From Mayamaea pseudoterrestris (taxonomy: Eukaryota > Bacillariophyta > Bacillariophyceae > Sellaphorales > Sellaphoraceae), in contig BROI01000008.1 of NCBI GenBank assembly GCA_027923505.1, positions 744,001 through 808,000 on the forward strand: a DNA stretch of 64,000 nucleotides, in the 5' to 3' direction. Position 1 is the first letter of the stretch. Each line of letters begins with the position of its first letter. The notes beneath the pieces are model-generated. The model did no database searches and had not been told where the DNA came from. It worked only from the letters and a program-made list of their open reading frames with translations. The position numbers were made by a program, and so were the translations under genes. This document shows positions 10,612-48,260 of this stretch, one piece after another.

Positions 10612-13600
10612 AGCATGCCATGTATACACCCATATCACACCAGAATGGTGCCAACAACATTATTCAGGCTGCGCTACAAGATGGTAGGCTTGGCTGGTGT
10701 CTCAGAGGATGTCAATGTATTTGGTGACAACTTGTCACCAATCTCAGCCCAAAGATGCCGTGACATTCAAACGCCCCTACAGCAAGCCCTGTAGGTGCCC
10801 AAATTACACCAGAATGGTGCCAACATCATTATTCAGGCTGCACTACAAGATGGAAAGCTTGGCCGGTGTCTCAGGGGATGGCAATGTATTTGGTGACAAC
10901 TTGTCACCAGTCTCAGCCCGCAGATGCCATAAATTCAAACGCCCCTACAGCAAGCCCTGTAGGTGCCCAAATTACACCAGAATGGTGACAACATCATTAT
11001 TCAGGCTGCGCTACAAGATGGTATGCTTGGCTGGTGTCTCAGGGAATGGCAATGTATTTGCTGACAACTTGTCACCAGTCTCAGCCCGCAGATGCCATGA
11101 CATTCAAACGCCCCTACAGCAAGCCCTGCAGGAGCCCAGATTACACCAGAATGGTGCCAACGTCATTATTCAGGCTGCACTACGAGATGGAAAGCTTGGC
11201 TGGTGTCTCAGGGGATGGCAATGTATTTGGTGACAACTTGTCACCAGTCTCAGCCCGCAGATGCCATGACATTCAGACGCCCCTACAGCAAGCCCTGTAG
11301 GTGCCCAAATTACACCAGAATGGTGCCAACATCATTATTCAAGCTGCACTACAAGACGGTAGGCTTGGCTGGTGTCTCAGGGGTTGTATGGCAATGTATT
11401 TGGTGACAACTTGTCACCAGTCTCAGCCCGCAGATGCCATAAAATTCAAACGCCCCTACAGCAAGCCCTGTAGGTGCCCAAATTACACCAGAATGGTGAC
11501 AACATCATTATTCAGGCTGCACTACAAGATGGAAAGCTGTTTTGCTGGTGTCTCAGAGGATGTCAATGTATTTGGTGACAACTTGTCACCAATCTCAGCC
11601 CACAGATGCCGTGACATTCAAACGCCCCTACAGCAAGCCCTGTAGGTGCCCAAATTACACCAGAATTGTGCCAACATCAATATTCAGGCTGCACTACAAG
11701 ATGGAAAGCTTGGCCGGTGTCTCAGGGGATGGCAATGTTTTTGGTGACAACTTGTCACCAGTCTCATCCCGCAGATGCCATAAATTCAAACGCCCCTACA
11801 GCAAGCCCTGTAGGTGCCCAAATTACACCAGAATGGTGACAACATCATTTTTCAGGCTGCACTACAAGATGGAAAGCTTGGCTGGTGTCTCAGAGGATGT
11901 CAATGTATTTGGTGACAACTTGTCACCAGTCTCAGCCCGCAGATGCCGTGACATTCAAATGCCCCTACAGCAAACCTTGTAGGCGCCCAAATTACACCAG
12001 AATTGTGCCAACATCATAATTCAGGCTGCAGTACAAGTTGGTATGCTTGGCTGGTGTCTCAGGGGATGGCAATGTATTTGGTTACAACTTGTCACCAGTC
12101 TCAGCCAGCAGATGCCGTGACATTCAGACGCCCCTACAGCAAGCCTTGTAGGCGCCCAAATTACACCAGAACGGTGCCAACATCATTATTCAGGCTGCAC
12201 TACAAGACGGTAGGCTTGGCTGGTGTCTCAGGGGTTGTATGGCAATGTATTTGGTGACAACTTGTCACCAGTCTCAGCCCGCAGATGCCATAAAATTCAA
12301 ACGCCCCTACAGCAAGCCCTGTAGGTGCCCAAATTACACCAGAATGGTGACAACATCATTATTCAGGCTGCACTACAAGATGGAAAGCTGTTTGGCTGGT
12401 GTCTCAGAGGATGTCAATGTATTTGGTGACAACTTGTCACCAGTCTCAGCCCGCAGATGCCGTGACATTCAAATGCCCCTACAGCAAGCCCTGTAGGTGC
12501 CCAAATTACACCAGAATTGTGCCAACATCAATATTCAGGCTGCAGTACAAGTTGGTATGCTTGGCTGGTGTCTCAGAGGATGGCAATGTATTTGGTGACA
12601 ACTTGCCTCCAGTCTCAGCCAGCAGATGCTCACGTGACATTTAAACGCCATACAGCAAGCCCTGTAGGTGCCCAAATTACACCAGAATAATGCCAACATC
12701 ATTATTCAAGCTGCAGTACAAGAAGGAAAGCTTGGCTGGTGTCTCAGGGGATGGCAATGTATATGGTAACAACTTGTCACCAGTCTCGGCAAGCAGATGC
12801 TGTGACATTCAAACGCCCCTACAGCACGCCCTGTAGGTGCCCAAATAACACCAGAATGGTGCCAACATCATTATTCAGGCTGCGCTACAAGATGGTATGC
12901 TTGGCTGGTGTCTCAGGGAATGGCAATGTATTTGCTGACAACTTGTCACCAGTCTCAGCCCGCAGATGCCATGACATTCAAACGCCCCTACAGCAAGCCC
13001 TGCAGGAGCCCAGATTACACCAGAATGGTGCCAACGTCATTATTCAGGCTGCACTACGAGATGGAAAGCTTGGCTGGTGTCTCAGGGGATGGCAATGTAT
13101 TTGGTGACAACTTGTCACCAGTCTCAGCCCGCAGATGCCATGACATTCAAATGCCCCTACAGCAAGCCCGTAGGTGCCCAAATTACACCAGAATGGTGCC
13201 AACATCATTATTCAGGCTGCACTACAAGATGGAAAGCTTGGCTGGTGTCTCAGGAGATGGCAATGAATTTGGTGACAACTTGTCACCAGTCTCAGCCCGC
13301 AGATGCCATGACATTCAAATGCCCCTACAGCAAGCCCCGTAGGTGCCCAAATTACACTAGAATGGTGCCAACATCATTGTTTAGGCTGCGCTACAAGATG
13401 GTAGGCTTGGCTGGTGTCTCAGGGGATGGCAATGTATTTGCTGACAACTTGTCACCAGTCTCAGCCCGCAGATGCCATGACATTCAGACGCCCCTACAGC
13501 AAGCCCTGCAGGTGCCCAAATTACACCAGAATGGTGCCAATATCATTATTCAGGCTGCGCTACAAGATGGTATGCTTGGCTGGTGTCTCAGGGGATGGCA

Positions 13601-14610
13601 ATGTATTTGCTGACAACTTGTCACCAGTCTCAGCCCGCAGATGCCATGACATTCAAATGCCCCTACAGCAAGCCCTGCAGGTGCCCAGATTACACCAGAA
13701 TGGTGCCAACATCATTATTCAGGCTGCACTACGAGATGGAAAGCTTGGCTGGTGTCTCAGGGGATGGCAATGTATTTGCTGACAACTTGTCACCAGTCTC
13801 AGCCCGCAGATGCCATGACATTCAAACGCCCCTACAGCAAGCCCTGCAGGTGCCCAGATTACACCAGAATGGTGCCAACATCATTATTCAGGCTGCACTT
13901 CGAGATGGAAAGCTTGGCTGGTGTCTCAGGGGATGGCAATGTATTTGGTGACAACTTGTCACCAGTCTCAGCCAGCAGATGCTCACGTGACATTCAAACG
14001 CCCCTACAGCAAGCCCTGTAGGTGCCCAAATTACACCAGAATGGTGCCAACATCATTTTTCAGGCTGCACTACAAGATGGAAAGCTTGGCTGGTGTCTCA
14101 GGAGATGGCAATGTATTTGGTGACAACTTGTCACCAGTCTCAGCCCGCAGATGCCATGACATTCAAATGCCCCTACAGCAAGCCCCGTAGGTGCCCAAAT
14201 TACAGCAGAATGGTGCCAACATCATTGTTTAGGCTGCGCTACAAGATGGTAGGCTTGGCTGGTGTCTCAGGGGATGGCAATGTATTTGCTGACAACTTGT
14301 CACCAGTCTCAGCCCGCAGATGCCATGACATTCAAACGCCCCTACAGCAAGCCCTGTAGGTGCCCAAATTACACCAGAACGGTGCCAACATCATTGTTTA
14401 GGCTGCACTACGAGATGGAAAGCTTGGCTGGTGTCTCAGGGGATGGCAATGTATTTGGTGACAACTTGTCACCAGTCTCAGCCAGCAGATGCCTTCATAT
14501 TTAATTGCCCCTATAAGAAGCCCTGTGGGGGCCCAAATTACACCAGAATGGTGCCAACATCATTATTCAAGCTGCGCTACAAGTGGGTAGGCTTGGCTGG
14601 TGTCTCAGGG
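10612..14610 (+). repeat. 169-bp satellite, block A (about 24 units)
   Basis: Head-to-tail units with a period of 169 bp (172-173 bp in variants). Typical landmarks in order are GGTGCCCAAATTACACCAG, CATCATTATTCAGGCTGC, CTACAAGATGG, GGCTGGTGTCTCAGGGGATG, the dyad TGGTGACAACTTGTCACCA, CAGTCTCAGCCCGCAGATGC and CCCCTACAGCAAGCCCTGTA. Short open frames of 67-178 aa recur here but are by-products of the repeat. A segment at about 11.0-11.2 kb reappears almost unchanged at about 12.87-13.06 kb (about 1.87 kb apart, roughly 11 units), which shows segmental amplification. Two units carry a CACGTG variant (12,631-12,636 and 13,984-13,989). The block is cut off at 14,610 by a copia element. Confidence 0.97.
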
Positions 14611-14995
14611 TAACACCGTTGACGATTTCGCAGTCAACGTCTTACCTCCAAAAAGCTCCGATACAGGGTCCTTGGCCACGGTCTGTACAGCTCTGATGGA
14701 GATGGCTCGTCAAATAGTCTTGCGCTCGCCACTACACGAATACGACTGCACTCTCGTCGCAAACTAGTAGTTTTATATTGTGAGCTTATCGCTACATCGC
14801 TACATCGACCACTCGGAAGATCATCCGATCAATCCAATCACATTACATCAGTCGTAACTGGTCGTTCCATTCATACAACGCATCCACACGACGGTTGCGC
14901 ACTTTCTTCATTCACATGTCACATACGACAGCTGCGGACTCGACACAAGCTAATTAGGGTTCGGGCTCTTGACTTCGCCGCTCTACGACTTGTCA
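14611..14995 (-). repeat. 3' LTR of element 1
   Basis: 385-bp terminal repeat, the downstream LTR in minus-strand sense. It lacks the 9-bp GTTTCTTTC found in the other copy. The purine-rich tract GAGGGGAG lies directly next to it at about 14,996-15,003. Confidence 0.95.
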
Positions 14996-17900
14996 CTCCC
15001 CTCGGGTACGCCGCTCGTCGTAGCCGCATTCTTGTCCTTCACAATTGCATACGATGTATCGCCGCGCCAAAACAATACTGGCTTGAGCAATGGCATCGCA
15101 TCACAGTACGGCAGGTACTTCGTCAGTACGTCCGCAATGTTCTCCTTTCCGTCAATCTTTACAAACTTGATAATCCCCGCAGCAACTGCCCAACGAACAC
15201 GATGGTAGGCCAACGCATTGTGTCGCTTGGACAATGTCGAACTCGGGATTGTAGATTGCGTAATCACTGCTTGGTTGTCTCCGTACATCCAGGCAGACTT
15301 CTCCAATGGTACGCCCATAGCCATGAGCGACACACGTAGAGAAATGCTGATATCCGTTCCACTCTTTGCTACGCCGAATTCCGATCCGAAGGTCGCAGTC
15401 TCGACTGTAGCCTGGAGTTTGCAATGCCAGTCGACAGGCGTCTGATTGACAAATGACAAAACTCCTTCCAATGACTTGCCTGTCACCATGCAATGCATGA
15501 GACACGCATCCTCGAAAGTTGATGTTCGTACGGTCACACCCTTTGGCGGTGGGTAGACGTCCAACATCTCATCAACTCCGTCCTTCCCGTAAACGCTGCG
15601 CTCCCAATCTTGTTCCTCCATGGTGCCGAAGTGCTCCTCGTTGGCTGGCCACTTTGTACGGAAACGGATTGCTGCGTCCGGTAACTCTCGCAAATATCCA
15701 CAGACTCGCTTCACACGCTGCAGGTGTCCCTTGCGCGGCTCCACACGGAATCGCGACAGACTCACAACTGCTACGGCAATGTCAAATCGTCCCAAAGTAA
15801 TCGCCCACTGAAGTGCTCCGACTAGAGACTGGTAAATCTTCTTCTCTTGGTCGTTCAGTAGCTCGCTTTGGTCGGTCGATGCTTGCTTGTCGATTTGGTG
15901 ATGGTACTTCTTCGGAGGACCTTCAAACAAACGCTCGTACTGCGCCAAGAATGCAACTTTCAGACGCCCGTAGGCAGTAAAGGGTTCCGTCAGGGTCTCG
16001 TCCAAAGTCACCGCCGAGATGATACTCGGGATGTCCAACACCTTTAAGCTTAAACTTGTACTTCTCCTCTAGCATCTTGAAGAACGCTGCTGGATCGTCT
16101 GAAATATTTAACAGATCGTCGACCCATACACAGAGGTAGTCGTAGCTGTCGCCGGCGTCCTTGATCCACAGATCGGAATCGCAATAGGACGGCTTCCACC
16201 CTTCCGCAAGTAGGGCGTCGGCTAAGCGTTCGTGAAATCGTGCTCCGCTCGTTCGCAATCCGTACAAAGCCTTGACGATGACCAGGATGTGTCCTTCGCG
16301 CTCCCCGAACTCGGGGCCTCCAACGAAGTATACCTTCTCCTTGGTGAACGCTTCGAGATAAGCATTCCCAATGTCACCGACCATGCACTTCTTGCCGTTC
16401 GCTTCTCCAATGACGAGAGCTAGACGCATTGCCTTCAATGAGATAACACTGGAGTAGGCATCGTCGTTGTCTTTCGTCATGTGGCCGCCTGCAACGAGAC
16501 GTGCCTTGTATCGCAAATCGTGCTTGACATCGTACACAAAATGGACTCGGATCTTCTGGTAACCAGTTGGTGGTGTTGTGGTGGAACTCGGACCAAGATC
16601 TTGAAACGTCTCGTACTCGTCCAGGTTCGCAAGCTCCACGCCTTCCGCATCCGTCCACTTCGTGTGCCCTGCAGCTTCTTGTAGACGACGCGCTTCCTTC
16701 CAGTCTCGGGGTACTTGGACTCCAAACTTGTAGCGCGGTCCGTTCTTCTGCTGCTCCATTCGGGCGGTCGCCACCTTGCGCGCAACCTTCTTGGCGTTCC
16801 GGCCCATCGATTCAACGATGTCCATCCGTCCTTGTCGAGAAGATTATGCTTTTGCGCGTAGGCTGCCACTGATACTTTGTCGCTTTCGATCATCGCGTTG
16901 AGAGGCTCCCAAGTCTTGGATCCATCGTCCCATTGTACAAGGACGTTCCACTTGGAGTGCTTCCAGTTCTTCGACTTGCTCGTCAGCGGACCCTGATGGT
17001 CTAGAATCTCCTTGAAGAACCATTTACGCTCAGGATTTGCCATGTCTTGGTTCACTTTGGCCTCATAGAGATCGGAAACCTCGACATAGGACATGACTTC
17101 ATCCGCTTCGCCGTTACCAAGTTTCAGCATCATTTTAATGTTCTGATGGTTCTGGGCGTCGCGATTGTTCAGCTTGCTCATGACGGTCGCTCGAACTTCT
17201 TGCCCGTCGTCCGTCTTCATGAGAAACGACTTGCCGATAAGTTCATCGGGTGCATACTTCGGGAGTTTGCGCCACGGATTGATGTTCTTCTTCTTCGGCT
17301 TGTCGTCGTCGTCATCGGCAGGAAGCATCGGCAGTGGATCTAGCTCCCCGTCGGTCATATCGTCATCTTCCGGGTATTCCACCGTCTCGACCAAAGGGGT
17401 ATCGTCTTCGTCAGGAATGAAAGAATCTTCGTCTCTGCTGTCGGCGTCGGTAATCTTCTTGATCATTTCCGGCATAAGGATCTCGCCACCTAGACCAGGT
17501 ACGGTATAGCGCGGCTCCCCTTCTTTCATGACTGGGGAAGCAGGTGCCGGTACGCGAAGGTTCAAAAATTTTGGGTTGTTTCGGGGTAAGCAAACCGATC
17601 GCGTCATGATCTCGTGTGTCTCGCAATCGCAGATGAAGTACGTCAGGTCGTCTCCGCACGTCGTGTTGGGACCAAGCCAGTACGCCGCGCGCTGGCGGGT
17701 ACCCGGGGCCTCGACATCCTTGACAAAGTAGTTGACAATTTCAAACCAACGAAAATGCAAATACTTCGACACGTCGGGGACTTGCCCAGTGATAAACTCA
17801 ATGGGAGATTTGCCGTCCAAGGCAGGATGCGACAAATGACGGTACATCTCGGTCTGAAAGAGTAAAGCGCGTAGCCAGAAGCATGCCGGAGTGCCCGTTC

Positions 17901-20283
17901 GGTCCATAAGTCGTTCATGACTTTCCTTTACGTGCCCGATGATGCGATCGGCTGGGTTTTGATTCTGATAGTACGGCTCCGATGTATGACGACGGCGAAT
18001 CATGAACTCGCGCATTACTTCGTCAAACTCGGCACTCATCGCTTCTTTCGCATTATCCGAGAAGACTTCCAACGGAGCTCCAAACTCGCGGATGAAATCA
18101 CGGAATCGTTTTGGTACGTCACCTTTCGTCCGCATGGGATACACGACAATGATCTGACTGCGACAACCATAGAATAGCTGCACGCATGTGCACCCTGCAT
18201 GTCCGTCGATATGGTCATCCATGGCAGGTTCGTCGAAGAACATGGTGTCATGGGCCACTCGATCATCTAGACGGTAGACGTTCAGGAATCGGCTCTTTCG
18301 ATGCATTCGTGGGGGGTATCGGCGCTCGTGCATGTTGAACTGCGTGCTATGGCGCAAAGTATCCTTGATCGTCTGCGCCGGGTACCATGCAAAGTTCGGC
18401 AGCAATGCGTCGATATCGGGTTTCTTTGGCAGGATAGACTTGTAGGGCTGATAGACGAGATCCGCATTGTATTTCTGTACGACGGCACAAACATTCAGCT
18501 CCTTCTCGGTGTAAACAGGTTGATTGTCGTGTCCGAGATTCGTATAAGTCAGGTTGCTCTGACAATGGGTGCGATTCCGCGTACGCGAGCGTGTCACGCG
18601 CGTGAAGCCCTCTTCGTCGTCACTGTCTTCGTCGTCTTCATCGCGCGACAACAAGTCCGGTACGTCGTCCTCGTCGTCATCGTCATCCGAAGAGTCATAG
18701 TCGTCGTCCTCGGTCGGCTCGACGTCAAACTCATTCGGATCCCAAGGCCCATCGAAAGTCATCATGACCCGAGGTAAGGTGTGAAGCTCATGCGCCGACA
18801 CTGGAAACATTGGCAAGGTCGCCATGCCACTTTCCATTCCGAGCATAAACTTGTATCCATCTGGCGTTTCGATTCGTAACTTGCCACCAAAGTTGTAATG
18901 CTTATCATTGACATGAAGTCCGAAGGCTTCCATCTGCATACTCGAATGAATCGTCTTGCCGGTTCCAGAATATGCGTAATTATGGAACTCGCCGATGACC
19001 CAACCCTTGGTGCTCTTAAGCTTGGCGACTGCTGTGACGGTAGACAGGTCCGGAAGCTTGAGACCACCGACTCCAGTGACTTCAATCTTGTGGAACTTGT
19101 CCTCGGTAAGGATGCGGCCATCCGCTCCCCATACTCCGCCACTCGCGCCGCGATCGACAGTCGACGCTGAATGCTTATCCAAGTCAATGCTCGCGACTTT
19201 GTACTTGCGACTCTGAGCAATGTTTGCTCCCCGAGTCGTAGTCGTGGGCTGGTCTGGACCTAAGAAACTTCGCATCGCTGAGCCACGGCTGGTGTTGTTC
19301 ACACATTCGGTCGCCGCACTCGCCGTCGTTGCCGCTGATGAAGTGGCTGCGACGTTTGCGTTGCGTGTTGTACTCGTCGTCTGCGTGGTGCCTGCCTGTG
19401 TTGCTGATGCCGAACCACCTGCAGCACTGGCCGCTCGACTCGTACCACGGCGTTCAAACACTTCATGTTGCTGATCGCGGGTAAGGAGTCGCCACGTGTT
19501 TGGTGGAATCGTCGCATTCACGTCGCTGGGAATTTCGATCGTCTTCGTGTCGGCATAGCTGCGAACATACGAACGAGTATCTCCCCGACCGCGGCCGCCG
19601 CCGCCTCGTCCCGTGCTCAAGTCGCCGCAACCACCGCCCCCCTGATTGGATTGCTGATTGTTGCTGCTACTTGGCGTAGACTGGGAATTGTTTGCGCTTG
19701 CCTTCTTCGTCTTCTCCTTCTCTTTCTTGGTTTGCTCAGATTGGTTCGCCTGGCGCTTCTCGGTCTCCTTGATGCCACGACGATTGTCAGATTGACGTGC
19801 GACGTCGTTCAGGAGGTTCCAAAACTGGGTGTACGTCATCGGGTTGCCGGTCTTGGACTCTTCGATCAGCGCCATGTTCACCGCCGATGCCATATCCGCA
19901 TGGCGGAAAACCACGGTCAGCTCTGACGCTTCGTGCTGAGGCTCGGTTTCCTCAGCGTAGTCATTGTAGTTCTCTTCCTTGCTGGACCACTGGATAAGCC
20001 AATCTGACGAGAGACTGCCATGACGGGATTCAAATTGCCCTTCGTCTTCGCGAGCACGGTGCCCAACTCCAGAATGTCGCCTCCAACTCTGCATGACGCA
20101 GGCATTTGCGCTGTCGATGTGCTTGCGGCAATGGACATGAGCTTGCTCTGCGGTGTCTTGCAGGTAAGGCGGCAAAGTTCGGTGACACTGATACTGGCAC
20201 CGGGCTCGGAGTGCAGCTGGTGCCTTGACCCTCTCGTCCCCAGCCAAGCGCCAGTAGGTGCCAGAGGAGCAGAAGGGCGACAT
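14983..20283 (-). pseudogene. pol: pol of element 1: protease, integrase, chromo-like module, RT, RNase H
   Basis: The main open frame (20,283-16,477) holds an aspartic protease, integrase and a chromodomain-like segment (LVQWDDGSKTWEPL). It then shifts at about 16.80 kb into the RT frame (16,825-15,923; RT box VWVDDLL) and again at about 15.97 kb into the RNase H frame (16,041-14,983; ETATFGSEF, GDNQAV, ADVLTK). The protease motif is Asp-Arg-Gly-Ala instead of Asp-Ser/Thr-Gly-Ala. The integrase position matching the catalytic Glu of element 2 (NPCER) reads Asp (NPADR). Either change would probably kill activity. A highly acidic spacer (about 18.6-18.73 kb) lies between protease and integrase. 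Confidence 0.85.
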
Positions 20284-22937: not shown

Positions 22938-22972
22938 GTCTCAGCCCGCAGATGCCATGACATTCAAACACC

Positions 22973-36400: not shown

Positions 36401-39277
36401 ACCACAGAACCGGGTCATCCAGAACAAAATCCATGCGAACGTCACACGTCGCACATTAAGCCAATGATGGAGAACCTCCAACGAGATTCGGGTTCGCCAG
36501 GCCATTGCTGGGTTTTGCTGATTAAATTCGTAATCATGATACTGAACGTCCTCGCGACGAAATCGCTGGGATGGCGCACGCCAACGGAAGTTGCGTTCGG
36601 AAATCTGCCGGATATTTCGCCTTTGTTACATTTCAAGTGGTGGGAACCGGTCACGTTTGAGGCGCAGGGGAGCTTTCCCTCGGCGGTACGATCTGGCAAC
36701 GGCCGATTCGTGGGCATCGCAGAGAATAGCGGTCCGCACATGACTTTTCTCGTTCTGACGGACGACACGCTTCAGGCGATTCCGCGCTCCAACGTGGTCT
36801 CGCGCAGCTACTTGTTACCACGAGAGTTGCCTTCCTTCCCTGAGTCTGGAGGGGAGATTTCTGAAGAAGCTACACGCGCAAGCGAGCGAAATTTTGAAAC
36901 TCCAGATCTCGCGACAGGACGCTACCATAGCACGCATGTGACAGAAAGTAGTCACGACAACTACGAAGGAAACGACGACGAAACGATTCCGATGGCGAAC
37001 CACGCCAACGTACCAGCGAAGTTCTTCAGAAGGGCTGAGCAAGAATCAGGGAATAAATGCCCTCTGTTCTCTCCAAGCGAACTCATCGGACGCACGTTCG
37101 TAAGGGAACACGAAAACGGTCAGAAAATGCGAGCGACTGTATGCGAATATATCGAAGTACGCGATAACGAGCTACTCGAAACGACGAAAGGTTTCCTAAT
37201 CCAAATGGGAGAGGAGCCAGCGAAAGACTTAATAAGTTACAACGAACTGTCGGATTTAATCGAACGACAGATGGACGAAGATATACGAAACGATCCGGCG
37301 ACTCAGTGGGTATTCACGAAGGTAATCGGACACGAGCTTAATTTGAAACCGAACGATCCGACATACAAAGGAAGTTCAAGTAACGTTCTCGTCGAATGGA
37401 CTGACGGAACGACGACGTGGGAGCCTCTCGCGATCATGAAGAAGGACGATCCGATAACGATCGCAGAGTATGGACTCAAGCACGGCTTACTCGACAAGCC
37501 AGGATGGAAGCAGCTGGAGCATTACACTCGGAAGCGAAAGAAGTTTCGACAGATGGTAACAGCGGCGAAACGAAAATCGAAAGCAAACGGCGTACGCTAC
37601 AAATTCGGCGTAAGGTTGCCGCGCAATTATAAAGATGCGAAAGCTCTCGACGAGATCAACGGCAACACGCTGTGGACGGATGCGATTCGAACGGAATTAA
37701 ATCAGATAAATGATTACGACACGTTCGCAGATCAAGGAGTCGGTAAGGTTATGCCGGCGCCGTGGAAACGAATAAACGTGCACATGATATTCGATGTCAA
37801 GCACGATTTGCGACGGAAAGCACGACTCGTTGCAGGAGGACATATGACAGAGCCGCCGAAGGATTCAGTTTACTCGGGCGTTGTGTCATTGCGAAGTCTA
37901 CGAATGGTAGCGATGTTAGCGGAACTCAACGGTCTGGAACTGTGGGCAGCTGACGTCGGCAACGCATACTTGGAAGCGAAAACGAAAGAGAAGGTTTATA
38001 TCGTGGCAGGTCCGGAGTTCGGGGAGCTCGAGGGTCACACGCTCACGATCGTGAAGGCATTATACGGTCTTCGCACGTCAGGCGCACGCTGGCACGAGCA
38101 CTTTGCAGACACGCTCCGCGACATTGGCTTCATGCCGTGTATCGCAGAACCGGACGTGTGGATGCGCGATAAAGGCACGCACTACGAATACGTTTGTGTG
38201 TATGTCGACGATTTAGCGATAGCGATGAAGAATCCGAAGGAACTAACGGATCTTTTAATTGAGAACTACAACTACAAGTTGAAGGGCGTCGGTCCATTGG
38301 CATATCATTTGGGCGCAGACGTTTGGCGAGACGACGACGGCGTACTCTGCTTCGGAGCGAAGAAGTACGTCACAAGACTACTAGCGAACTACAAAGAAAT
38401 GTTCGGCGAGGAACCGCGACCGCAGACAAGTCCACTACGCGACGGCGATCATCCGGAACTCGACGAAACGAAAGAACTTGACGACGACGGAATTGCGAAG
38501 TATCAATCGATAATTGGTGCGTTGCAATGGGCAGTAAGTTTATGTCGATTCGACATTCACTGTGCTGTCATGACTATGGGGAGATTCCGAGCTGCGCCAC
38601 GAGCGGGGCACTTGGAACGGTTGAAGCATATTTGCGGATACTTACGAAGATACCCGGATGGAGCGATTCGATTCAACGTTTCGATTCCAACGGACGAGCG
38701 ATACGCGACAGTTGACAAGATGGATTGGGATTACAGTGTGTACGGCAAGATCTGCGAAGAGCTTCCGTGGAACATGCCCACGCCGCGCGGCAAGGCGGTG
38801 CGAATGTCAACGTTCGAAGATGCGAACCTGTACCACGATTACACGACGGGACGGGCAGCGATGGGCATGCTACACATGTTGAATGGAACAGTCGTTGATT
38901 GGTTTTCGAAACGCCAAGCGACGGTCGAGACGGCGACGTACGGCTCGGAGTTTGTAGCAGCGAGAGTGAGCACGGAGCAGATCATGGATCTTCGCTTCAC
39001 GCTACGCATGTTGGGAGTTCCGCTCGACGGACCTTCATGGATGTTTGGAGACAACAAGTCGGTAACGCAAAGCAGCAACCTACCGCACTCTAGTCTGACG
39101 AAGCGACACAATGCACTGGCATTTCACCGTGTACGCGAAGCGATTGCGGCGGGAATTATTAATTTCAACCACATCATGGGAACGACAAACCCGGCGGATG
39201 TACTTACCAAGTTTCTTCCACGGGCTACGGCAAGCAAGCACTTAAAGAACCTGCTCTTCAAGGAATCTAACTATTAG
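33485..39277 (+). CDS. copia Gag-Pol polyprotein of element 2
   Basis: The first in-frame ATG (33,485) gives 1930 aa; the frame is open a little further upstream without an ATG. Order: Gag (to about 35.1 kb, Gly-rich near 34.82 kb, no CCHC knuckle seen); aspartic protease with DSGANGG (about 35,320); integrase with Asp in HSDTPALDDG, Asp in SDNAKSE and Glu in NPCERH (about 36.15-36.45 kb); a chromodomain-like segment LVEWTDGTTTWEPL (about 37.39 kb); RT with VYVDDLAIA (about 38.2 kb); and RNase H with ETATYGSEF, GDNKSV and PADVLTK. The protein would form particles, copy its RNA and integrate the cDNA. No frameshift separates gag and pol, so the Gag:Pol ratio must be set some other way. Confidence 0.93.
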   Translation: MAETRAQKDAAFAHVYEENVGVFQDPQFKELFDELGVESLTQLIEMEYDDFATKWNVTTTTTTTTDDGDNVTQETSEHSLTKMKQRTITNAIEWYLAQESPDIKTWSQLTTETLATFVTARAKERVQARNIASVGSGSGAKPPAKESETESKKDESKDSTLTNEGDESKPDSADKVPPTSVDVDTKQSPTSVLDLGDDEDDEKYSDQFTKSIKFSARDCKEMKLDSSWKQWISELKVIATLHDFHEVFDDDYDPKEKGPKEQKAYAKKNVFVYRIFLTHCRTPSASLAVQQFKKTMDGREVYQRLRTRYEEGATAHIEKERARTELQGMRLTEKWSRPTIEFLALFYKKVIWLLEMDAEALTGLQRYDMLRDAFSEHTGFSASLAGFDGMIAIKKHMGQHDSEDNFAQLYAHLEECCIKYDKKHPSTTKTKRTINQAQSSGTKGGGGGNGGATPSGLSAERFAAIMKKPHASVKDEVWLEMKFDQRKQLKDKRATAPKTPENGWRPRNQRGTATTQTQVNAAHQERHATESVANDHASVPGTINIQPGNSGMSVQTAARSVLQANNASTTTQQVTGSLTTDNTGRGTFSFNMHRRMRVNRAHYERINEGALIDSGANGGLCGGDMLVVSETNAEVDVTGIDDHIVPALKIGTAAGLAKTLSGETILLLCHQYALKRDGPTIHCPNQLRAMGHRVDDIPTMFGGTQRITTNIGGYVLPLAIRDGLVYLDVTKPTFDDLDKYPTVIMTSDVPWDSTVYDVEHAHDDFDERDHDYGSFDERFDDDGITHRNRHTPTRTGDELDVLINRCVRHAQFSRVNLRKLRSKEPDYNALRPYLGWVPTERVQQTLRHTEAWYHLSAHPRLPFRHLTKSRFPAANVQRLRELFATDTIHSDTPALDDGILGHGGATKMQLFVGRESFYTRGYPMKSESEMSNALEDFIREVGAPNGLLSDNAKSETGKAVRDLCRMYNIPQVTTEPGHPEQNPCERHTSHIKPMMENLQRDSGSPGHCWVLLIKFVIMILNVLATKSLGWRTPTEVAFGNLPDISPLLHFKWWEPVTFEAQGSFPSAVRSGNGRFVGIAENSGPHMTFLVLTDDTLQAIPRSNVVSRSYLLPRELPSFPESGGEISEEATRASERNFETPDLATGRYHSTHVTESSHDNYEGNDDETIPMANHANVPAKFFRRAEQESGNKCPLFSPSELIGRTFVREHENGQKMRATVCEYIEVRDNELLETTKGFLIQMGEEPAKDLISYNELSDLIERQMDEDIRNDPATQWVFTKVIGHELNLKPNDPTYKGSSSNVLVEWTDGTTTWEPLAIMKKDDPITIAEYGLKHGLLDKPGWKQLEHYTRKRKKFRQMVTAAKRKSKANGVRYKFGVRLPRNYKDAKALDEINGNTLWTDAIRTELNQINDYDTFADQGVGKVMPAPWKRINVHMIFDVKHDLRRKARLVAGGHMTEPPKDSVYSGVVSLRSLRMVAMLAELNGLELWAADVGNAYLEAKTKEKVYIVAGPEFGELEGHTLTIVKALYGLRTSGARWHEHFADTLRDIGFMPCIAEPDVWMRDKGTHYEYVCVYVDDLAIAMKNPKELTDLLIENYNYKLKGVGPLAYHLGADVWRDDDGVLCFGAKKYVTRLLANYKEMFGEEPRPQTSPLRDGDHPELDETKELDDDGIAKYQSIIGALQWAVSLCRFDIHCAVMTMGRFRAAPRAGHLERLKHICGYLRRYPDGAIRFNVSIPTDERYATVDKMDWDYSVYGKICEELPWNMPTPRGKAVRMSTFEDANLYHDYTTGRAAMGMLHMLNGTVVDWFSKRQATVETATYGSEFVAARVSTEQIMDLRFTLRMLGVPLDGPSWMFGDNKSVTQSSNLPHSSLTKRHNALAFHRVREAIAAGIINFNHIMGTTNPADVLTKFLPRATASKHLKNLLFKESNY

Positions 39278-39294
39278 GTATGACTTGAGGGGAG

Positions 39295-39607
39295 TTGCAG
39301 GATGCGAACGAAAACAGCGAAAATCGGGCAAGTCACACCGAATGTCCGATAGGGTGACACAGCGGCACTCGCGGCTCACCACAGCCTCACGATCGCGTGA
39401 TGCGTGGCAGCGACGGCTTCGAAGCGATTCAACAAGTATATTGCTGAAACTAGTGCGATATAGAGTAGAAACAAGCAGACTTACTAAGCTTGAAGAGTTA
39501 AGAAAGCGATTTATTCGTCTCTCGTATTGTAGCAACTGCAAGCTTGGATTGGCCATCCAAGGACAGCTACAAGCGAAAGGTGCAACGATTTGATTTACAA
39601 GTTACAA
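39295..39607 (+). repeat. 3' LTR of element 2 (middle LTR of three)
   Basis: 313 bp, identical to the 5' LTR. Its end joins directly to internal pol sequence (TATGGACTC) rather than to flanking DNA. Confidence 0.95.
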
Positions 39608-41416
39608 TATGGACTCAAGCACGGCTTACTCGACAAGCCAGGATGGAAGCAGCTGGAGCATTACACTCGGAAGCGAAAGAAGTTTCGACAGATGGTAACA
39701 GCGGCGAAACGAAAATCGAAAGCAAACGGCGTACGCTACAAATTCGGCGTAAGGTTGCCGCGCAATTATAAAGATGCGAAAGCTCTCGACGAGATCAACG
39801 GCAACACGCTGTGGACGGATGCGATTCGAACGGAATTAAATCAGATAAATGATTACGACACGTTCGCAGATCAAGGAGTCGGTAAGGTTATGCCGGCGCC
39901 GTGGAAACGAATAAACGTGCACATGATATTCGATGTCAAGCACGATTTGCGACGGAAAGCACGACTCGTTGCAGGAGGACATATGACAGAGCCGCCGAAG
40001 GATTCAGTTTACTCGGGCGTTGTGTCATTGCGAAGTCTACGAATGGTAGCGATGTTAGCGGAACTCAACGGTCTGGAACTGTGGGCAGCTGACGTCGGCA
40101 ACGCATACTTGGAAGCGAAAACGAAAGAGAAGGTTTATATCGTGGCAGGTCCGGAGTTCGGGGAGCTCGAGGGTCACACGCTCACGATCGTGAAGGCATT
40201 ATACGGTCTTCGCACGTCAGGCGCACGCTGGCACGAGCACTTTGCAGACACGCTCCGCGACATTGGCTTCATGCCGTGTATCGCAGAACCGGACGTGTGG
40301 ATGCGCGATAAAGGCACGCACTACGAATACGTTTGTGTGTATGTCGACGATTTAGCGATAGCGATGAAGAATCCGAAGGAACTAACGGATCTTTTAATTG
40401 AGAACTACAACTACAAGTTGAAGGGCGTCGGTCCATTGGCATATCATTTGGGCGCAGACGTTTGGCGAGACGACGACGGCGTACTCTGCTTCGGAGCGAA
40501 GAAGTACGTCACAAGACTACTAGCGAACTACAAAGAAATGTTCGGCGAGGAACCGCGACCGCAGACAAGTCCACTACGCGACGGCGATCATCCGGAACTC
40601 GACGAAACGAAAGAACTTGACGACGACGGAATTGCGAAGTATCAATCGATAATTGGTGCGTTGCAATGGGCAGTAAGTTTATGTCGATTCGACATTCACT
40701 GTGCTGTCATGACTATGGGGAGATTCCGAGCTGCGCCACGAGCGGGGCACTTGGAACGGTTGAAGCATATTTGCGGATACTTACGAAGATACCCGGATGG
40801 AGCGATTCGATTCAACGTTTCGATTCCAACGGACGAGCGATACGCGACAGTTGACAAGATGGATTGGGATTACAGTGTGTACGGCAAGATCTGCGAAGAG
40901 CTTCCGTGGAACATGCCCACGCCGCGCGGCAAGGCGGTGCGAATGTCAACGTTCGAAGATGCGAACCTGTACCACGATTACACGACGGGACGGGCAGCGA
41001 TGGGCATGCTACACATGTTGAATGGAACAGTCGTTGATTGGTTTTCGAAACGCCAAGCGACGGTCGAGACGGCGACGTACGGCTCGGAGTTTGTAGCAGC
41101 GAGAGTGAGCACGGAGCAGATCATGGATCTTCGCTTCACGCTACGCATGTTGGGAGTTCCGCTCGACGGACCTTCATGGATGTTTGGAGACAACAAGTCG
41201 GTAACGCAAAGCAGCAACCTACCGCACTCTAGTCTGACGAAGCGACACAATGCACTGGCATTTCACCGTGTACGCGAAGCGATTGCGGCGGGAATTATTA
41301 ATTTCAACCACATCATGGGAACGACAAACCCGGCGGATGTACTTACCAAGTTTCTTCCACGGGCTACGGCAAGCAAGCACTTAAAGAACCTGCTCTTCAA
41401 GGAATCTAACTATTAG
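39608..41416 (+). pseudogene. truncated pol (RT and RNase H) in the tandem copy
   Basis: About 600 codons, open from the duplication junction to the normal pol stop. They cover the region just after the chromo-like module, the whole RT (YVDD box at about 40.35 kb) and RNase H. Gag, protease and integrase are absent. The frame runs back into the preceding LTR, so any product would need a non-standard start. Confidence 0.9.
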
Positions 41417-41433
41417 GTATGACTTGAGGGGAG

Positions 41434-41746
41434 TTGCAGGATGCGAACGAAAACAGCGAAAATCGGGCAAGTCACACCGAATGTCCGATAGGGTGACACA
41501 GCGGCACTCGCGGCTCACCACAGCCTCACGATCGCGTGATGCGTGGCAGCGACGGCTTCGAAGCGATTCAACAAGTATATTGCTGAAACTAGTGCGATAT
41601 AGAGTAGAAACAAGCAGACTTACTAAGCTTGAAGAGTTAAGAAAGCGATTTATTCGTCTCTCGTATTGTAGCAACTGCAAGCTTGGATTGGCCATCCAAG
41701 GACAGCTACAAGCGAAAGGTGCAACGATTTGATTTACAAGTTACAA
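41434..41746 (+). repeat. third LTR of the element 2 family
   Basis: 313 bp, identical to the other two. It is preceded by the purine tract TTGAGGGGAG and followed by satellite-like CACCAGTCTCAGCCCGCAG. Confidence 0.95.
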
Positions 41747-42545
41747 CACCAGTCTCAGCCCGCAGATGCCGTGACACTCAAACGCATCTACAGCAGATGG
41801 CCCACAAAGTCGGTACCCAAATTATGACCAGAATGGATGCCAAAATATTATATGTATTCATCCGCTGCGCTACAAGGTGGTAGGCTTGGTTGAGCGTTTG
41901 AATCTCAGGGATGGCCAAGTCCTCTTCACCAGCCACATAAAGCAGCAAGGTGATTCATCCCCCCAAGACTCTGGCATCACTCCGCTGGAGTGGCTCAATT
42001 TGCCCACGAAGGGGCCAAACATTGCTACTTGCGGCTGCGCAAAAATTGACAAGATGCGGAGGCTTTGGCTGGTGTGAATTGTGGCAATGAATTGCAGGTG
42101 ACAACTTGTCACCAGTCTCAGCGCAAAGATGCCATGACATTCAAGCGCCACAGCAAGCCCTGTAGAGATTACACCAGAGTGGTGGCATCATCGCAAGTTA
42201 TTCGGGCTGCGCAACCATGAGGCCAATTGGTTTGGGCCACACGTGATGGATTGTTCAAAGTAGGATACAGCATGCGCGAGTCATCTAAGACTTCTTTTGA
42301 GAGAGCAATCCGACCCTTGCGCCACCAAGCTCTTGAGGAAGGCTTGGAAGTGCGAGCTTTAGCTGCCACACGCCTTGCCTGTTCATCAGCCTTTCGGGCC
42401 GCATCCGATAGAGACTGTTGGACTCTAATAGAAAGAAAATTGGCTAGGTCTGCCACAAAGGCACCGTGTCGCATCAAACCAACAATGGAGGATTTATCAG
42501 CGGCAGTGACGACTACCGTTTTAAATTGTTTGTTTGACAACCAAT
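41747..42545. repeat. degenerate satellite mixed with old retroelement pol sequence
   Basis: 41,747-41,945 starts as a satellite unit but drifts: it shares CTGCGCTACAAGGTGGTAGG with the satellite, and CCAAAATATTATATG, TATTCATCCG, GCCAAGTCCTC and CCACATAAAG with the decayed pol at 32,850-33,022. A second diverged unit with an intact dyad core (GGTGACAACTTGTCACC) lies at about 42,000-42,200. The last part (42,540-42,169, minus) has a 123-aa open frame with an alanine/arginine-rich helix and a Trp-rich end (SSRAWWRKGRIALSKEVL). It is probably a pol fragment, but its family is not certain. Confidence 0.65.
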
Positions 42546-45500
42546 CCGAGTGTAGGTACGGCCCAAATTACACCAGAATGGTGACAACATCATTATTCAG
42601 GCTGCGCTACAAGATGGTAGGCTTGGCTGGTGTCTCAGGGGATGGCAATGTATTTGGTGACAACTTGTCACCAGTCTCAGCCAGCAGATGCCATGACATT
42701 CAAACGCCCCTACAGCAAGCCCTGTAGGTGCCCAAATTACACCAGAATGGTGCCAACATCATTATTCAGGCTGCACTACAAGATGGAAAGCTTGGCTGGT
42801 GTCTCAGGGGATGGCAATGTATTTGGTGACAACTTGTCACCAGTCTCAGCCCGCAGATGCCATGACATTCAAACGCCCCTACAGCAAGCCCTGTAGGGGC
42901 CCAAATTACACCAGAATGGTGCCAACATCATTATTCAGGCTGCGCTACAAGATGGTAGGCTTGGCTGGTGTCTCAGGGGATGGCAATGTATTTGGTGACA
43001 ACTTGTCACCAGTCTCAGCCAGCAGATGCCATGACATTCAAACGCCCCTACAGCAAGCCCTGTAGGTGCCCAAATTACACCAGAATGGTGCCAACATCAT
43101 TGTTTAGGCTGCACTACAAGATGGAAAGCTTGGCTGGTGTCTCAGGGGATGGCAATGTATTTGGTGACAACTTGTCACCAGTCTCAGCCCGCAGATGCCA
43201 TGACATTCAAACGCCCCTACAGCAAGCCCTGTAGGTGCCCAAATTACACCAGAATGGTGCCAACATCATTATTCAGGCTGCACTACAAGATGGAAAGCTT
43301 GGCTGGTGTCTCAGGGGATGGCAATGTATTTGGTGACAACTTGTCACCAGTCTCAGCCAGCAGATGCCGTGACCTTCAAACGCCCCTACAGCAAGCCCTG
43401 TAGGGGCCCAAATTACACCAGAATGGTGCCAACATCATTATTCAGGCTGCACTACAAGATGGTAAGCTTGGCTGGTGTCTCAGGGGATGGCAATGTATTT
43501 GGTGACAACTTGTCACCAGTCTCAGCCAGCAGATGCCATGACATTCAAACGCCCCTACAGCAAGCCCTGTAGGTGCCCAAATTACACCAGAATGGTGCCA
43601 ACATCATTATTCAGGCTGCGCTACAAGATGGAAAGCTTGGCTGGTGTCTCAGGGGATGGCAATGTATTTGGTGACAACTTGTCACCAGTCTCAGCCCGCA
43701 GATGCCATGACATTCAAACGCCCCTACAGCAAGCCCTGTAGGTGCCCAAATTACACCAGAATGGTGCCAACATCATTATTCAGGCTGCACTACAAGATGG
43801 AATGCTTGGCTGGTGTCTCAGGGGATGGCAATGTATTTGGTGACAACTTGTCACCAGTCTCAGCCCGCAAATGCCATGACATTCAAACGCCCCTACAGCA
43901 AGCCCTGTAGGTGCCCAAATTACACCAGAATGGTGCCAACATCATTATTCAGGCTGCACTACAAGATGGAATGCTTGGCTGGTGTCTCAGGGGATGGCAA
44001 TGTATTTGGTGACAACTTGTCACCAGTCTCAGCCAGCAGATGCCGTGACATTCAAATGCCCCTACAGCAAGCCCTGTAGGTGCCCAAATTACACCAGAAT
44101 GGTGCCAACATCATTATTCAGGCTGCACTACAAGATGGAAAGCTTGGCTGGTGTCTCAGGGGATGGCAATGTATATGGTGACAACTTGTCACCAGTCTCA
44201 GCCCGCAGATGCCATGACATTCAAACGCCCCTACAGCAAGCCCTGTAGGTGCCCAAATTACACCAGAACGGTGCCAACATCATTTTTGAGACTGCGTTAC
44301 AAGATAGAAAGCTTGGCTGGTGTCTCAGGGGATGGCAATGTATTTGGTGACAACTTGTCACCAGTCTCAGCCTGCAGATGCCATGACATTCAAACGCCCC
44401 TACAGCAAGCCCTGTAGGGCCCCAAATTACACCAGAATGGCGCCAACAACGTTATTCAGGCTGCACTACAAGATGGAATGCTTGGCTGGTGTCTCAGGGG
44501 ATGGCAATGTATTTGGTGACAACTTGTCACCAGTCTCAGCCTGCAGATGCCATGACATTTAAACGCCCCTACAGCAAGCCCTGTAGGTGCCCAAATTACA
44601 CCAGAATGGTGCCAACATCACTATTCAGGCTGCACTACAAGACCGAATGCTTGGCTGGTGTCTCAGGGGATGGCAATGTATTTGGTGACAACTTGTCACC
44701 AGTCTCAGCCCGCAGATGCCATGACATTCAAACGCCCCTACAGCAAGCCCTGTAGGTGCCCAAATTACACCAGAATGGTGCCAACATCATTATTCAGGCT
44801 GCACTACATGATGGTAACTCGGCTGGTGTCCCAGGGGATGGCAATGTATTTGGTGACAACTTGTCACCAATCTCAGCTGCAGATGCCGTTACATTCAAAC
44901 GCCCCTACGGCAAGCCCTGTAGGTTCCCAAATTACACCAGAATGGTGCCAGCATCATTATTCTGGCTGCGCTACATAATGGAAAGCTTGGCTGGTGTCTC
45001 AGGGGATGGCAATGTATTTGGTGACAACTTGTCACCAGTCTCAGCCGTAGATGCCATGACATTCAAATGCCCCTACAGCAAGCCCTGTAGGTGCCCAAAT
45101 TACACCAGAATGGTGCCAACATCATTATGCAGGCTGCGCTACAAGACGGAAGGCTTGGCTGGTGTCTCAGGGGATGGCAATGTATTTGGTGACAACTTGT
45201 CACCAGTCTCAGCCCGCAGATGCCATGACATTCAGACGCCCCTACAGCAAGCCCTGTAGGTGCCCAAATTACCCCACAATGCTGCCAACATCATTATTTA
45301 GGCTGCACTACAAGATGGAAAGCTTGGCTGGTGTCTCAGGGGACGGCAATGTATTTGGTGACAACTTGTCACCAGTCTCAGCCCGCAGATGCCATGACAT
45401 TCAAACGCCCCTACAGCAAGCCCTATAGGTGCCCAAATTACACCAGAATGGTGCCAACATCATTATTCAGGCTGCGCTACAAGATGGTAGGCTTGGCTGG

Positions 45501-48260
45501 TGTCGCAGGGGATGGCAATGTATTTGGTGACAACTTGTCACCAGTCTCAGCCAGCAGATGCCATGACATTCAGACGCCCCTACAGCAAGCCCTGTAGGTG
45601 CCCAAATTACACCAGAATGGTGCCAACATCATTATTCAGGCTGCACTACAAGATGGAAAGCTTGGCTGGTGTCTCAGGGGATGGCAATGTATTTGGTGAC
45701 AACTTGTCACCAGTCTCAGCCCGCAGATGCCATGACATTCAAACGCCCCTACAGCAAGCCCAGTAGGTGCCCAAATTACACCAGAACGGTGCCAACATCA
45801 TTATTTAGGCTGCACTACAAGATGGTAGGCTTGGCTGGTGTCTCAGGGGATGGCAATGTATTTGGTGACAACTTGTCACCAGTCTCAGCCAGCAGATGCC
45901 ATGACATTCAGACGCCCCTACAGCAAGCCCTGTAGGTGCCCAAGTTACACCAGAATGGTGTCAGCAGCATGATTTAGGCTGCACTACAAGATGGTAGGCT
46001 TTACTGGTGTCTCAGGGGATGGCAATGTATTTGATGACAACTTGTCACCAGTCTCAGCCCGCAGATGCCATGACATTTAAATGCCCCTACAGCAAGCCCT
46101 GTAGGTGCCCAAGTTACACCAGAATGGTGACAACATCATTATACAGGCTGCGCTACAAGATGGTAGGCTTGGCTGGTGTCTCAGGGGATGGCAATGTATC
46201 TGGTGACAACTTGTCTGACACCAGTCTCAGCCAGCAGATGCCATGACATTCAGACGCCCCTACAGCAAGCCCTGTAGGTGCCCAAATTACACCAGAATGG
46301 TGCCAACATCATTATTCAGGCTGCGCTACAAGATGGAAAGCTTGGCTGGTGTCTCAGGGGATGGCAATGTATTTGGTGACAACTTGTCACCAGTCTCAGC
46401 CCGCAGATGCCATGACATACAAATGCCCCTACAGCAAGCCCAGTAGGTGCCCAAATTACACCAGAATGGTGCCAACATCATTATTCAGGCTGCGCTACAA
46501 GATGGAAAGCTTGATTGGTGTCTCAGGGAATGGCAATGTATTTGGTGACAACTTGTCACCAGTCTCAGCCCGCAGATGCCATGACATTCAAACGCCCCTA
46601 CAGCAAGCCCTGTAGGTGCCCAAATTACACCAGAATGGTGCCAACATCATTATTTAGGCTGCGCTACAAGATGGTAGGCTTGGCTGGTGTCTCAGGGGAT
46701 GGCAATGTATTTGGTGACAACTTGTCACCAGTCTCAGCCAGCAGATGCCGTGACCTTCAAACGCCCCTACAGCAAGCCCTGTAGGTGCCTAAATTACACC
46801 AGAATGGTGACAACAGCCTTATTGAGGCTGCGCTACAAGATGGTAGGCTTGGCTGGTGTCTCAGGGGATGGCAATGTATTTGGTGACAACTTGTCACCAG
46901 TCTCAGCCAGCAGATGCCGTGACCTTCAAACGCCCCTACAGCAAGCCCTGTAGGTGCCCAAATTACACCAGAATGGTGCCAACAGCCTTATTGAGGCTGC
47001 GCTACAAGATGGTAGGCTTGGCTGGTGTCTCAGGGGATGGCAATGTATTTGGTGACAACTTGTCACCAGTCTCAGCCCGCAGATGCCATGACATTCAAAT
47101 GCCCCTACAGCAAGCCCTGTAGGTGCCCAAATTTCACCAGAATGGTGCCAACATCATTATTCAGGCTGCGCTACAAGATGGAAAGCTTGGCTGGTGTCTC
47201 AGGGGATGGCAATGTATTTGGTGACAAGTTGTCACCAGTCTCAGCCCGCAGATGCCATGACATTCAGACGCCCCTACAGCAAGCCCTGTAGGTGCCCAAA
47301 TTACCCCACAATGCTGCCAACAGCATGATCCAGGCTGCGCTACAAGATGGCAGGCTTGGCTGGTGTCTCAGGGGATGGCAATGTATTTGGTGACAACTTG
47401 TCACCAGTCTCAGCCAGCAGATGCCTTCATATTCAATTGCCCCTATAGCAAGCCCTGTAGGTGCCCAAATTACACCAGAATGGTGCTAACATCATTATTC
47501 AGGCTGCGCTACAAGTGGGTAGGCTTGGCTGGTGTCTCAGGGGATGGCAATGTATTTGGTGACAACTTGTCACCAGTCTCAGCCAGCAGATGCCATGACA
47601 TTCAGACGCCCCTACAGCAGGCCCTGTAGGTGCCCAAATTACACCAGAATGGTGCCAACAGCATTATTCAGGCTGCACTACGAGATGGAAAGCTTGGTTG
47701 GTGTCTCGGGGGATGGCAATGTATTTGGTGACAACTTGTCACCAGTCTCAGCCCGCATATGCCATGACATTGAAACGCCCCTACAGCAAGCCCTGTAGGT
47801 GCCCAAATTACCCCACAATGGTGCCAACATCATTATTCAGGCTGCACTACAAGATGCAAAGCTTGGCTGGTGTCTCAGGGGATGGCAATGTATTTGGTGA
47901 CAACTTGTCACCAGTCTCAGCCAGCAGATGCCTTCATTTTCAATTGCCCCTATAGCAAGCCCTGTAGGTGCCCAAATTACACCAGAATGGTGCCAACAGC
48001 ATGATTCAGGCTGCACTACAAGATAGAAAGCTTGGCTGGTGTCTCAGGGGATGGCAATGTGTTTGGTGACAACTTGTCACCAGTCTCAGCCAGCAGATGC
48101 CGTGACATTCAAACGCCCCTACAGCAAGCCATGTATACACCCATATTACACCAGGATGGTGCCACCAATCTTGTTTAAGCTGCGCTACAAGATGGTATGC
48201 CTGGCTGGTGTCTCAGTTGACTGCAATGTGACTGGGGAGAACTTCGCAACAGTAGCATGC
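42546..48260 (+). repeat. 169-bp satellite, block C (about 34 units)
   Basis: Same unit and orientation as blocks A and B. Units near the left edge are highly uniform; those beyond about 47.3 kb are more mixed (for example CCTTCATATTCAATTGCCCC in place of CATGACATTCAAACGCCCC, a variant also seen at 14.5 and 21.27 kb next to element 1). The last units decay at 48.13-48.26 kb with the CATGTATACACCCAT variant that also marks the far left edge at 10.62 kb. Confidence 0.96.

What the first reader, a model, noticed from the sequence alone, without database searches (positions are those of the whole stretch)
10612..48260. A nucleosome-length (169 bp) satellite of about 110 units, pierced by retrotransposons
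Three blocks in one orientation add up to about 18.6 kb, and the junction at element 1 shows that blocks A and B were once continuous. A unit near 170 bp, two-unit and three-unit higher-order repeats and nested LTR elements are the layout of regional centromeres or pericentromeric heterochromatin in other eukaryotes. Published diatom centromeres are described as AT-rich without such satellites, so this may be a heterochromatic knob or a different kind of centromere.
Basis: partly seen in the sequence, partly recalled or inferred. Interest (0 to 1): 0.85.

Follow-up and report, generated by a model that had tools for sequence, protein, structure and literature searches.

The report
Dispersed nucleosome-length satellite with retrotransposon hotspot
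A 169-letter DNA unit repeated about 110 times here is a real satellite, but the same unit lies in dozens of scattered places of this alga-like genome, is worn down in the way methylated DNA is, and catches one jumping-gene family again and again at nearly the same spot of the unit, so it looks like silent chromatin rather than the one centromere of a chromosome.

Summary
In detail: three same-strand blocks of a 169-bp unit (18.5 kb, about 110 units), split by a Ty1/copia element with 96.4% LTRs and CAGGG on both sides, and by a second copia element. The centromere reading is only partly supported. The unit core occurs 8,643 times (about 5% of 30.6 Mb), in 94 sampled clusters on 30 of 41 contigs, five places on this contig alone. 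Best explanation: dispersed, CG-methylated, nucleosome-phased heterochromatin islands that serve as a copia landing platform. A centromere role of some or many arrays is not excluded: 11 of 42 sampled contig ends lie in satellites, so copy counts are lower bounds.

The parts
10612..14610 (+). Satellite block A, 169-bp unit, 23.5 copies; degenerate first unit at the left edge
   Evidence: TRF; unit search; sequence
14606..14610 (+). Target-site duplication CAGGG, left copy
   Evidence: sequence
14611..21203 (-). Element 1, Ty1/copia LTR retrotransposon; LTRs 14611-14990 and 20814-21203 (96.4%)
   Evidence: RVT_2 in ORF 15923-16825, - strand
21204..21208 (+). Target-site duplication CAGGG, right copy
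21204..30102 (+). Satellite block B, about 52 units, with one truncated and rearranged stretch at 25105-25145
30103..33021 (.). Non-satellite insert of unknown kind with a 207-bp exact direct repeat (31518-31724 and 31988-32194)
33022..41746 (+). Element 2, Ty1/copia LTR retrotransposon with an exact 2,139-bp tandem duplication giving three LTR copies (33022-33338, 39294-39610, 41433-41746)
41747..42210 (+). Decayed satellite pieces (41747-41795, 42049-42165, 42168-42210)
42561..48260 (+). Satellite block C, 33.5 units, decaying at the right edge
10722..10740 (+). Example of the conserved palindrome TGGTGACAACTTGTCACCA (unit positions 94-112), once per unit
10743..10759 (+). Where the copia insertion hotspot (unit positions 115-131) lies in the first unit; the insertions themselves were mapped in other arrays, the one in this window is at unit positions 75-79

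Best explanation
This is one island of a dominant, genome-wide dispersed satellite family of nucleosomal unit length. Shown: about 5% of the assembly, on at least 30 contigs; units somewhat more alike within than between arrays; a conserved 19-bp palindrome per unit; strong CpG decay; preferred and phased presence of one Ty1/copia family. Inferred: each unit carries one positioned nucleosome (169 = 147 + 22 bp) with the CpG cluster at unit positions 122-145 in or near the linker; the islands are CG-methylated, kept so by a DNMT5-type enzyme, and silent; a protein or a fixed nucleosome edge at the palindrome exposes positions 115-131, where the copia integration complex lands; the arrays spread and are homogenised by unequal exchange and reinsertion, not by transposition of a unit with fixed ends.
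For: Genome-wide: 4,467 + 4,176 core matches, reversed-pattern control 0; about 1.59 Mb or 5.2% after calibration; 94 sampled clusters on 30 contigs. CpG o/e 0.27/0.18/0.21 in blocks A/B/C against 1.15 and 1.10 in two genic stretches and 1.23 and 1.54 in the two copia elements, while satellite GpC stays at 1.21-1.26; 1.04 in four flanking C8 loci and 0.18-0.31 in other satellites. Transitions at the four CpG sites 13.0% against 1.8% at other C/G positions in 541 units. Palindrome: 9-bp arms, P 0.005 in 1,000 base shuffles; the best-conserved 17-bp windows of the unit lie in it; first of 169 windows in 35 units under 85% identity, second in 51 under 88% and in 77 under 90%. Copia family: 80 LTR starts; of 48 outer flanks 17 match this satellite and 5 other satellites, two of these 22 weakly; for 16 of 48, P about 1e-9 at the genome share and 0.002 at three times it; 11 of 16 placed sites within 17 bp, P <= 1e-5, and 0.0006 if only distinct positions count. 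A DNMT5-like ORF.
Against: No methylation, nucleosome, small-RNA or ChIP data were available; methylation is read only from mutation patterns. CpG depletion could in part be inherited from the founding units, and there are only four CpG sites in the consensus. The palindrome is not first in every array: rank 1 in 5 of 16, within the best 10 in 13 of 16, rank 20, 20 and 30 in three. The phased insertion could be a sequence preference of the integrase. 21 of 48 flanks are neither satellite nor the two copia elements. The insertion in this window itself (unit positions 75-79) is outside the hotspot. Only 4 of 9 satellite insertions read on both sides show an exact 5-bp duplication.
Confidence: 0.6

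Rival explanations
1. Pericentromeric or centromeric satellite of ordinary monocentric chromosomes: a few large arrays, partly missing from the assembly, carry CENH3, and the scattered islands, including this one, are derived copies.
For: 11 of 42 sampled contig ends lie in satellites (7 in the 169-bp one, 4 in the 352-bp one), so the largest arrays are probably unassembled. Several satellites of similar unit length lie next to each other. Small contigs C30 and C33 are very rich in arrays. A divergent H3 with CENH3-like features, by eye, is encoded.
Against: Several arrays on many contigs, spacing not different from random; ORFs within 0.5 kb on both sides here.
Confidence: 0.28
2. Repeat-based holocentromere or polycentromere like Tyba in Rhynchospora: every array is a small centromere unit.
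For: 172-bp Tyba in domains of about 20 kb along the chromosomes (passage of PMC11538461) resembles 169-bp arrays of about 3-30 kb on at least 30 contigs; dyad symmetry in each unit.
Against: Tyba is described as evenly spread; here spacing is not more even than random (P 0.88), density runs from 1.3 to 23 sampled clusters per Mb among 15 contigs, and on C2 all six sampled clusters lie beyond 1.7 of 2.78 Mb. No cytology.
Confidence: 0.07
3. Neutral junk: the satellite has no chromatin role; copia elements simply survive there and the integrase prefers the local sequence.
For: Survival bias is real in compact genomes (recalled); positions 118-120 alone hold 6 of 16 placed insertions, as a sequence preference would give.
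Against: Excess over three times the genome share; insertions also in the 176-, 183- and 352-bp satellites; palindrome kept under decay; CpG decay in unrelated satellites but not in the genic stretches read.
Confidence: 0.15
4. The array is the internal tandem part of a mobile element that moves as a whole.
For: Arrays in both orientations on at least 30 contigs. Three of the array edges read abut related 176- and 183-bp satellites.
Against: The 27 edges read by eye start at different unit positions and share no single flanking sequence; the core 28-mer has no exact match in viral contigs.
Confidence: 0.05

Closest known systems
Nucleosome-length (peri)centromeric satellites, such as human alpha satellite or the Arabidopsis 178-bp repeat (recalled); review PMC8122249 (start of abstract in the listing)
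   Same: Unit near one nucleosome, tandem, partly homogenised, retrotransposon load, dyad symmetry
   Different: In many islands on at least 30 contigs, here between genes; no demonstrated CENH3
Tyba, 172 bp, Rhynchospora holocentromeres (passage of PMC11538461)
   Same: Unit length; arrays of tens of kb at many sites
   Different: Spacing not even here; no CENH3 data
Phaeodactylum tricornutum centromeres (passages of PMC9266582; Diner 2017 not held)
   Same: Possibly the same broad group of organisms
   Different: Those are proposed as low-GC windows; this is 50% GC satellite DNA
Copia elements that prefer centromeric satellites, such as Tal1 of Arabidopsis lyrata (recalled)
   Same: A Ty1/copia family enriched in a nucleosome-length satellite
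   Different: Here the satellite is dispersed, and insertions cluster in 17 bp of the unit
DNMT5-dependent CG methylation (abstract and passages of PMC9998398; linker methylation in passages of PMC4247016)
   Same: DNMT5-like gene present; CpG decay in repeats; a CpG cluster once per nucleosome length
   Different: Methylation not measured here; PMC4247016 says that regularly spaced methylation was not detected in P. tricornutum

Membership tests
Satellite DNA | Long head-to-tail arrays of a unit in many copies | tested here: met
   the unit length, 169, is not a multiple of 3
Satellite DNA | Concerted evolution (units more alike within than between arrays) | tested here: met
   0.942 within, 0.919 between, 16 loci; modest
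Regional centromere satellite | One main locus per chromosome | tested here: not met
   six sampled clusters on C8, two of them this window's own blocks, so five places; 94 clusters in all; unassembled arrays could change this
Regional centromere satellite | CENH3 occupancy | not testable with these tools
   no ChIP data; a CENH3-like gene fragment exists (L133, by eye)
Tyba-like holocentromere satellite | Even spacing of arrays along chromosomes | tested here: not met
   mean nearest-neighbour distance 130 kb against 152 +- 18 kb at random on 15 contigs; sampled positions only
Phaeodactylum-type AT-rich centromere | Local minimum of GC | tested here: not met
   satellite GC 0.50-0.51, genic surroundings 0.46-0.50, 2-kb windows
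Heterochromatic (CG-methylated) satellite | CpG depletion with excess CpG transitions | tested here: met
Heterochromatic (CG-methylated) satellite | 5mC or H3K9me on the DNA | not testable with these tools
   no epigenome data
CENP-B-box-like motif satellite | A short protein-binding motif kept in each unit | tested here: inconclusive
   the 19-bp palindrome holds the best-conserved windows but ranks first in only 5 of 16 arrays; no binder known
Ty1/copia (element 1) | LTRs, 5-bp target-site duplication, RVT_2 reverse transcriptase | tested here: met

The most novel reading that the evidence does not exclude
In this organism the nucleosome-length satellites, led by the 169-bp one, are the chromatin platform of a dispersed (polycentric or holocentric) or satellite-based centromere, the conserved palindrome serves as a binding box for a CENP-B-like protein, and a copia family has evolved to integrate beside that box; a system that I did not find described for diatoms in the listings searched.
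Probability: 0.1. Interest if true: 0.88.

Novelty: new member of a known kind. Interest (0 to 1): 0.55.

Why it matters
My searches for diatom satellites and centromere satellites (capped listings) showed no description of such a family. Here one family makes up about 5% of a small genome and gives a natural read-out of chromatin phase: copia insertions on different contigs lie at the same few bases of a nucleosome-length unit. That makes three open questions testable with standard assays: whether DNMT5-type methylation marks linkers in this lineage, what binds the palindrome, and whether satellites or AT-rich sites form the centromere. If the islands were centromeric, the low-GC picture from Phaeodactylum would not hold for the whole group.

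Tried and rejected
Sole centromere of one chromosome: rejected for this locus by the copy map. RNA gene or tRNA-derived unit: no Rfam match at the gathering score and no tRNA in the window. Viral origin: no exact match of the core 28-mer in viral contigs. Mobile element with fixed ends: array edges differ. Species name: the Nop14 search gave 262 proteins, 120 listed, the best 79% and unnamed; the one organism named in the listed rows is a Bacillariaceae MAG at 55%; the chlorophyll protein matched Fcpb5 and FCP chains, not identically. Strong higher-order repeats: faint in the window. Evenness of arrays (a holocentric sign): not seen. The map is a sample: searches list only the first 100 places; searches list all matches of rare variants (56, 52 and 39); one search scored 40 of 605 candidates. 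From these lists 223 positions, thinned by hand, went into; positions over 15 kb apart count as different clusters, so one array split by an insertion, as in this window, counts twice. Rows dropped or judged: L119 left out of the phase test because its other flank is not satellite; L042 counted as not satellite because the last 48 bp before the LTR are not; L098 counted as satellite (71%, weak) but not placed; L051's match to the 347-bp satellite is 27 bp. Nine of the 20 right flanks were not used as events: internal, other LTR sequence, unreadable LTR end, or an element already counted. Sites in the unit were worked out by hand; one (L049) was 2 bp off and was put right, which leaves the 11 of 16 unchanged. 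One search stopped on an error after 13 arrays and was redone in full. The scan tests treat insertions as independent.
Full report
What is there. A Ty1/copia element splits blocks A and B; its LTRs are 96.4% alike and CAGGG stands on both sides. A second copia element, with an exact 2,139-bp tandem duplication that gives it three LTR copies, and about 2.9 kb of other DNA separate B and C. Decayed units lie at 41747-42210 and at the outer edges. An ORF with ankyrin repeats lies about 20 bp to the left and an ORF with helicase and GRF zinc-finger domains begins about 420 bp to the right. Nothing in the window reaches an Rfam gathering score, and there is no tRNA.

Where else it is. The 28-bp core of the unit, with up to 3 mismatches, occurs 4,467 times forward and 4,176 times reverse; the reversed control gives 0. 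With 184 bp of satellite per core match in the loci read, this is about 1.59 Mb or 5.2% of the assembly. Rare variants sample the map (searches list all their matches; 39, 8 and 22 are cut at 100 rows): 223 hand-thinned positions fall into 94 clusters on 30 contigs, six of them on the window's contig, of which two are this window's own blocks on either side of element 2. On 15 contigs of known length the spacing of clusters does not differ from random placement (130 against 152 +- 18 kb), and sampled density runs from 1.3 per Mb (C1) to 23 per Mb (C30). Of 42 sampled contig ends, 7 lie in this satellite and 4 in a 352-bp one, so the assembly breaks in satellites and copy counts are lower bounds. 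Exact copies of several kb inside arrays (C23: 3.2 kb, C2: 3.7 kb compared) point to recent exchange or to assembly duplicates.

The unit. The consensus was made from 541 units. Units agree 0.942 within and 0.919 between arrays (16 loci). The unit has a 19-bp palindrome with 9-bp arms, TGGTGACAACTTGTCACCA, at positions 94-112 (an arm of 9 or more: P 0.005 in shuffles), and the best-conserved 17-bp windows lie in it. By array it ranks first in 5 of 16, within ten in 13 of 16, and at 20, 20 and 30 in the other three; in 35 units less than 85% alike to the consensus it is kept at 0.967 against a mean of 0.882 and ranks first, in 51 units under 88% and 77 under 90% second. Those units were found by similarity search, which may favour conserved words in general. 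Higher-order structure in the window is faint.

CpG decay. CpG observed/expected is 0.27, 0.18 and 0.21 in blocks A-C, 1.15 and 1.10 in two genic stretches, 1.23 and 1.54 in the two copia elements, 0.83 in the 2.9-kb insert; GpC in the satellite is 1.21-1.26. The consensus keeps four CpGs, three of them within positions 122-145; transitions there are 13.0% over all four sites against 1.8% at other C/G positions. Other tandem repeats found beside the arrays, with periods of 176, 183, 172/180 (dimer 352) and 347 bp, are depleted as well (0.18-0.31). The 176- and 183-bp ones are relatives (about 71%); otherwise no similarity between these families, or to the 169-bp unit, was found at the level searched. 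The 176-bp one is rarer: 115 core matches. The genome has three places with a C5-methylase domain: one matches DNMT2 chains, one bacterial-type methylases, one matches chain 7r76, which the table names Rad8 and which I recall as Cryptococcus DNMT5. In P. tricornutum loss of DNMT5a goes with global depletion of DNA methylation (abstract of PMC9998398). So the satellites look CG-methylated over long times; that is inference from mutation.

Retrotransposon landing. Element 1's LTR start occurs 80 times. I read the DNA before 52 of these (50; the window; L019): 15 proved internal, 37 are outer flanks. Eleven further elements were judged by the other flank (all; 40 right flanks were fetched). Of these 48 events, 17 abut the 169-bp satellite (one weakly), 5 other satellites (one weakly), 5 copia DNA and 21 anything else. 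Sixteen satellite sites could be placed in the unit: 11 have the centre of the assumed 5-bp duplication within positions 115-131, six of them at 118-120; scan P <= 1e-5, with distinct positions only 0.0006. Both element orientations occur. The insertion in this window, at 75-79, is outside the hotspot. Exact 5-bp duplications were seen in 4 of 9 satellite insertions read on both sides; the other five look rearranged or abut a second element.

How it most likely works. 169 bp is one nucleosome plus 22 bp. I infer that each unit positions one nucleosome, that the CpG cluster at 122-145 is in or near the linker and is methylated, and that the palindrome fixes the phase or is bound by a protein, leaving 115-131 open to the copia integration complex. 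Periodic, linker-specific CG methylation is reported from other microalgae but was not detected in P. tricornutum (passage of PMC4247016). The arrays would then be silent islands that take up retrotransposons away from genes. Spread would be by exchange and reinsertion: 27 array edges start at different unit positions and share no one flanking sequence, although three abut the 176- and 183-bp satellites and some abut copia DNA.

Centromere or not. A centromere per chromosome marked by this locus is not supported. A centromere made of some large, unassembled array, or of many arrays, is not excluded: a divergent H3 (L133) that looks CENP-A-like to my eye shows that ChIP is possible. Published Phaeodactylum centromere candidates are low-GC windows (passages of PMC9266582); these arrays are 50% GC.

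In print. Searches for satellites or centromere satellites in diatoms (30 of 40 papers listed, 9 of 9, 15 of 345; and passages of PMC3155517 and PMC8147415) showed none like this. PMC3155517 (2011) says that no evidence for centromeric sequences had been found in T. pseudonana. The species here is not identified, so a description that I did not see cannot be excluded.

Noticed in passing
33022-41746: Element 2 has an exact 2,139-bp tandem duplication (37469-39607 = 39608-41746) and three LTR copies; flanks of element 1 relatives on C10, C27 and C41 hint at similar LTR-internal-LTR-internal-LTR layouts.
   Followed up: partly
30103-33021: 2.9 kb between block B and element 2 with a 207-bp exact direct repeat; its end looks like part of the decayed stretch after element 2; CpG o/e 0.83, between satellite and genes.
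   Followed up: partly
L016:1-3854, L021:1802-2853, L008:205-1045, L017:7991-9954: Further satellites (periods 352, 176, 183, 347 bp) near the 169-bp arrays, all CpG-poor; the 352-bp one also lies at four sampled contig ends.
   Followed up: partly
L133 (C2:130100-130700): Fragment of a divergent histone H3 that reads like a CENH3 (by eye).
   Followed up: no
L130:829-3231 (C2 near 18.6 kb): ORF of 800 aa that matches chain 7r76 (recalled as Cryptococcus DNMT5), near the start of contig C2.
   Followed up: partly
2003-7063 and 6915-8711, - strand: Two long ORFs (1,686 and 598 aa) left of the array without a Pfam match at E 0.001.
   Followed up: no
C23:227425 and 232073; C2 spacing 6,295 bp (L022): Several kb of array repeated letter for letter: recent exchange or an assembly duplicate.
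   Followed up: partly
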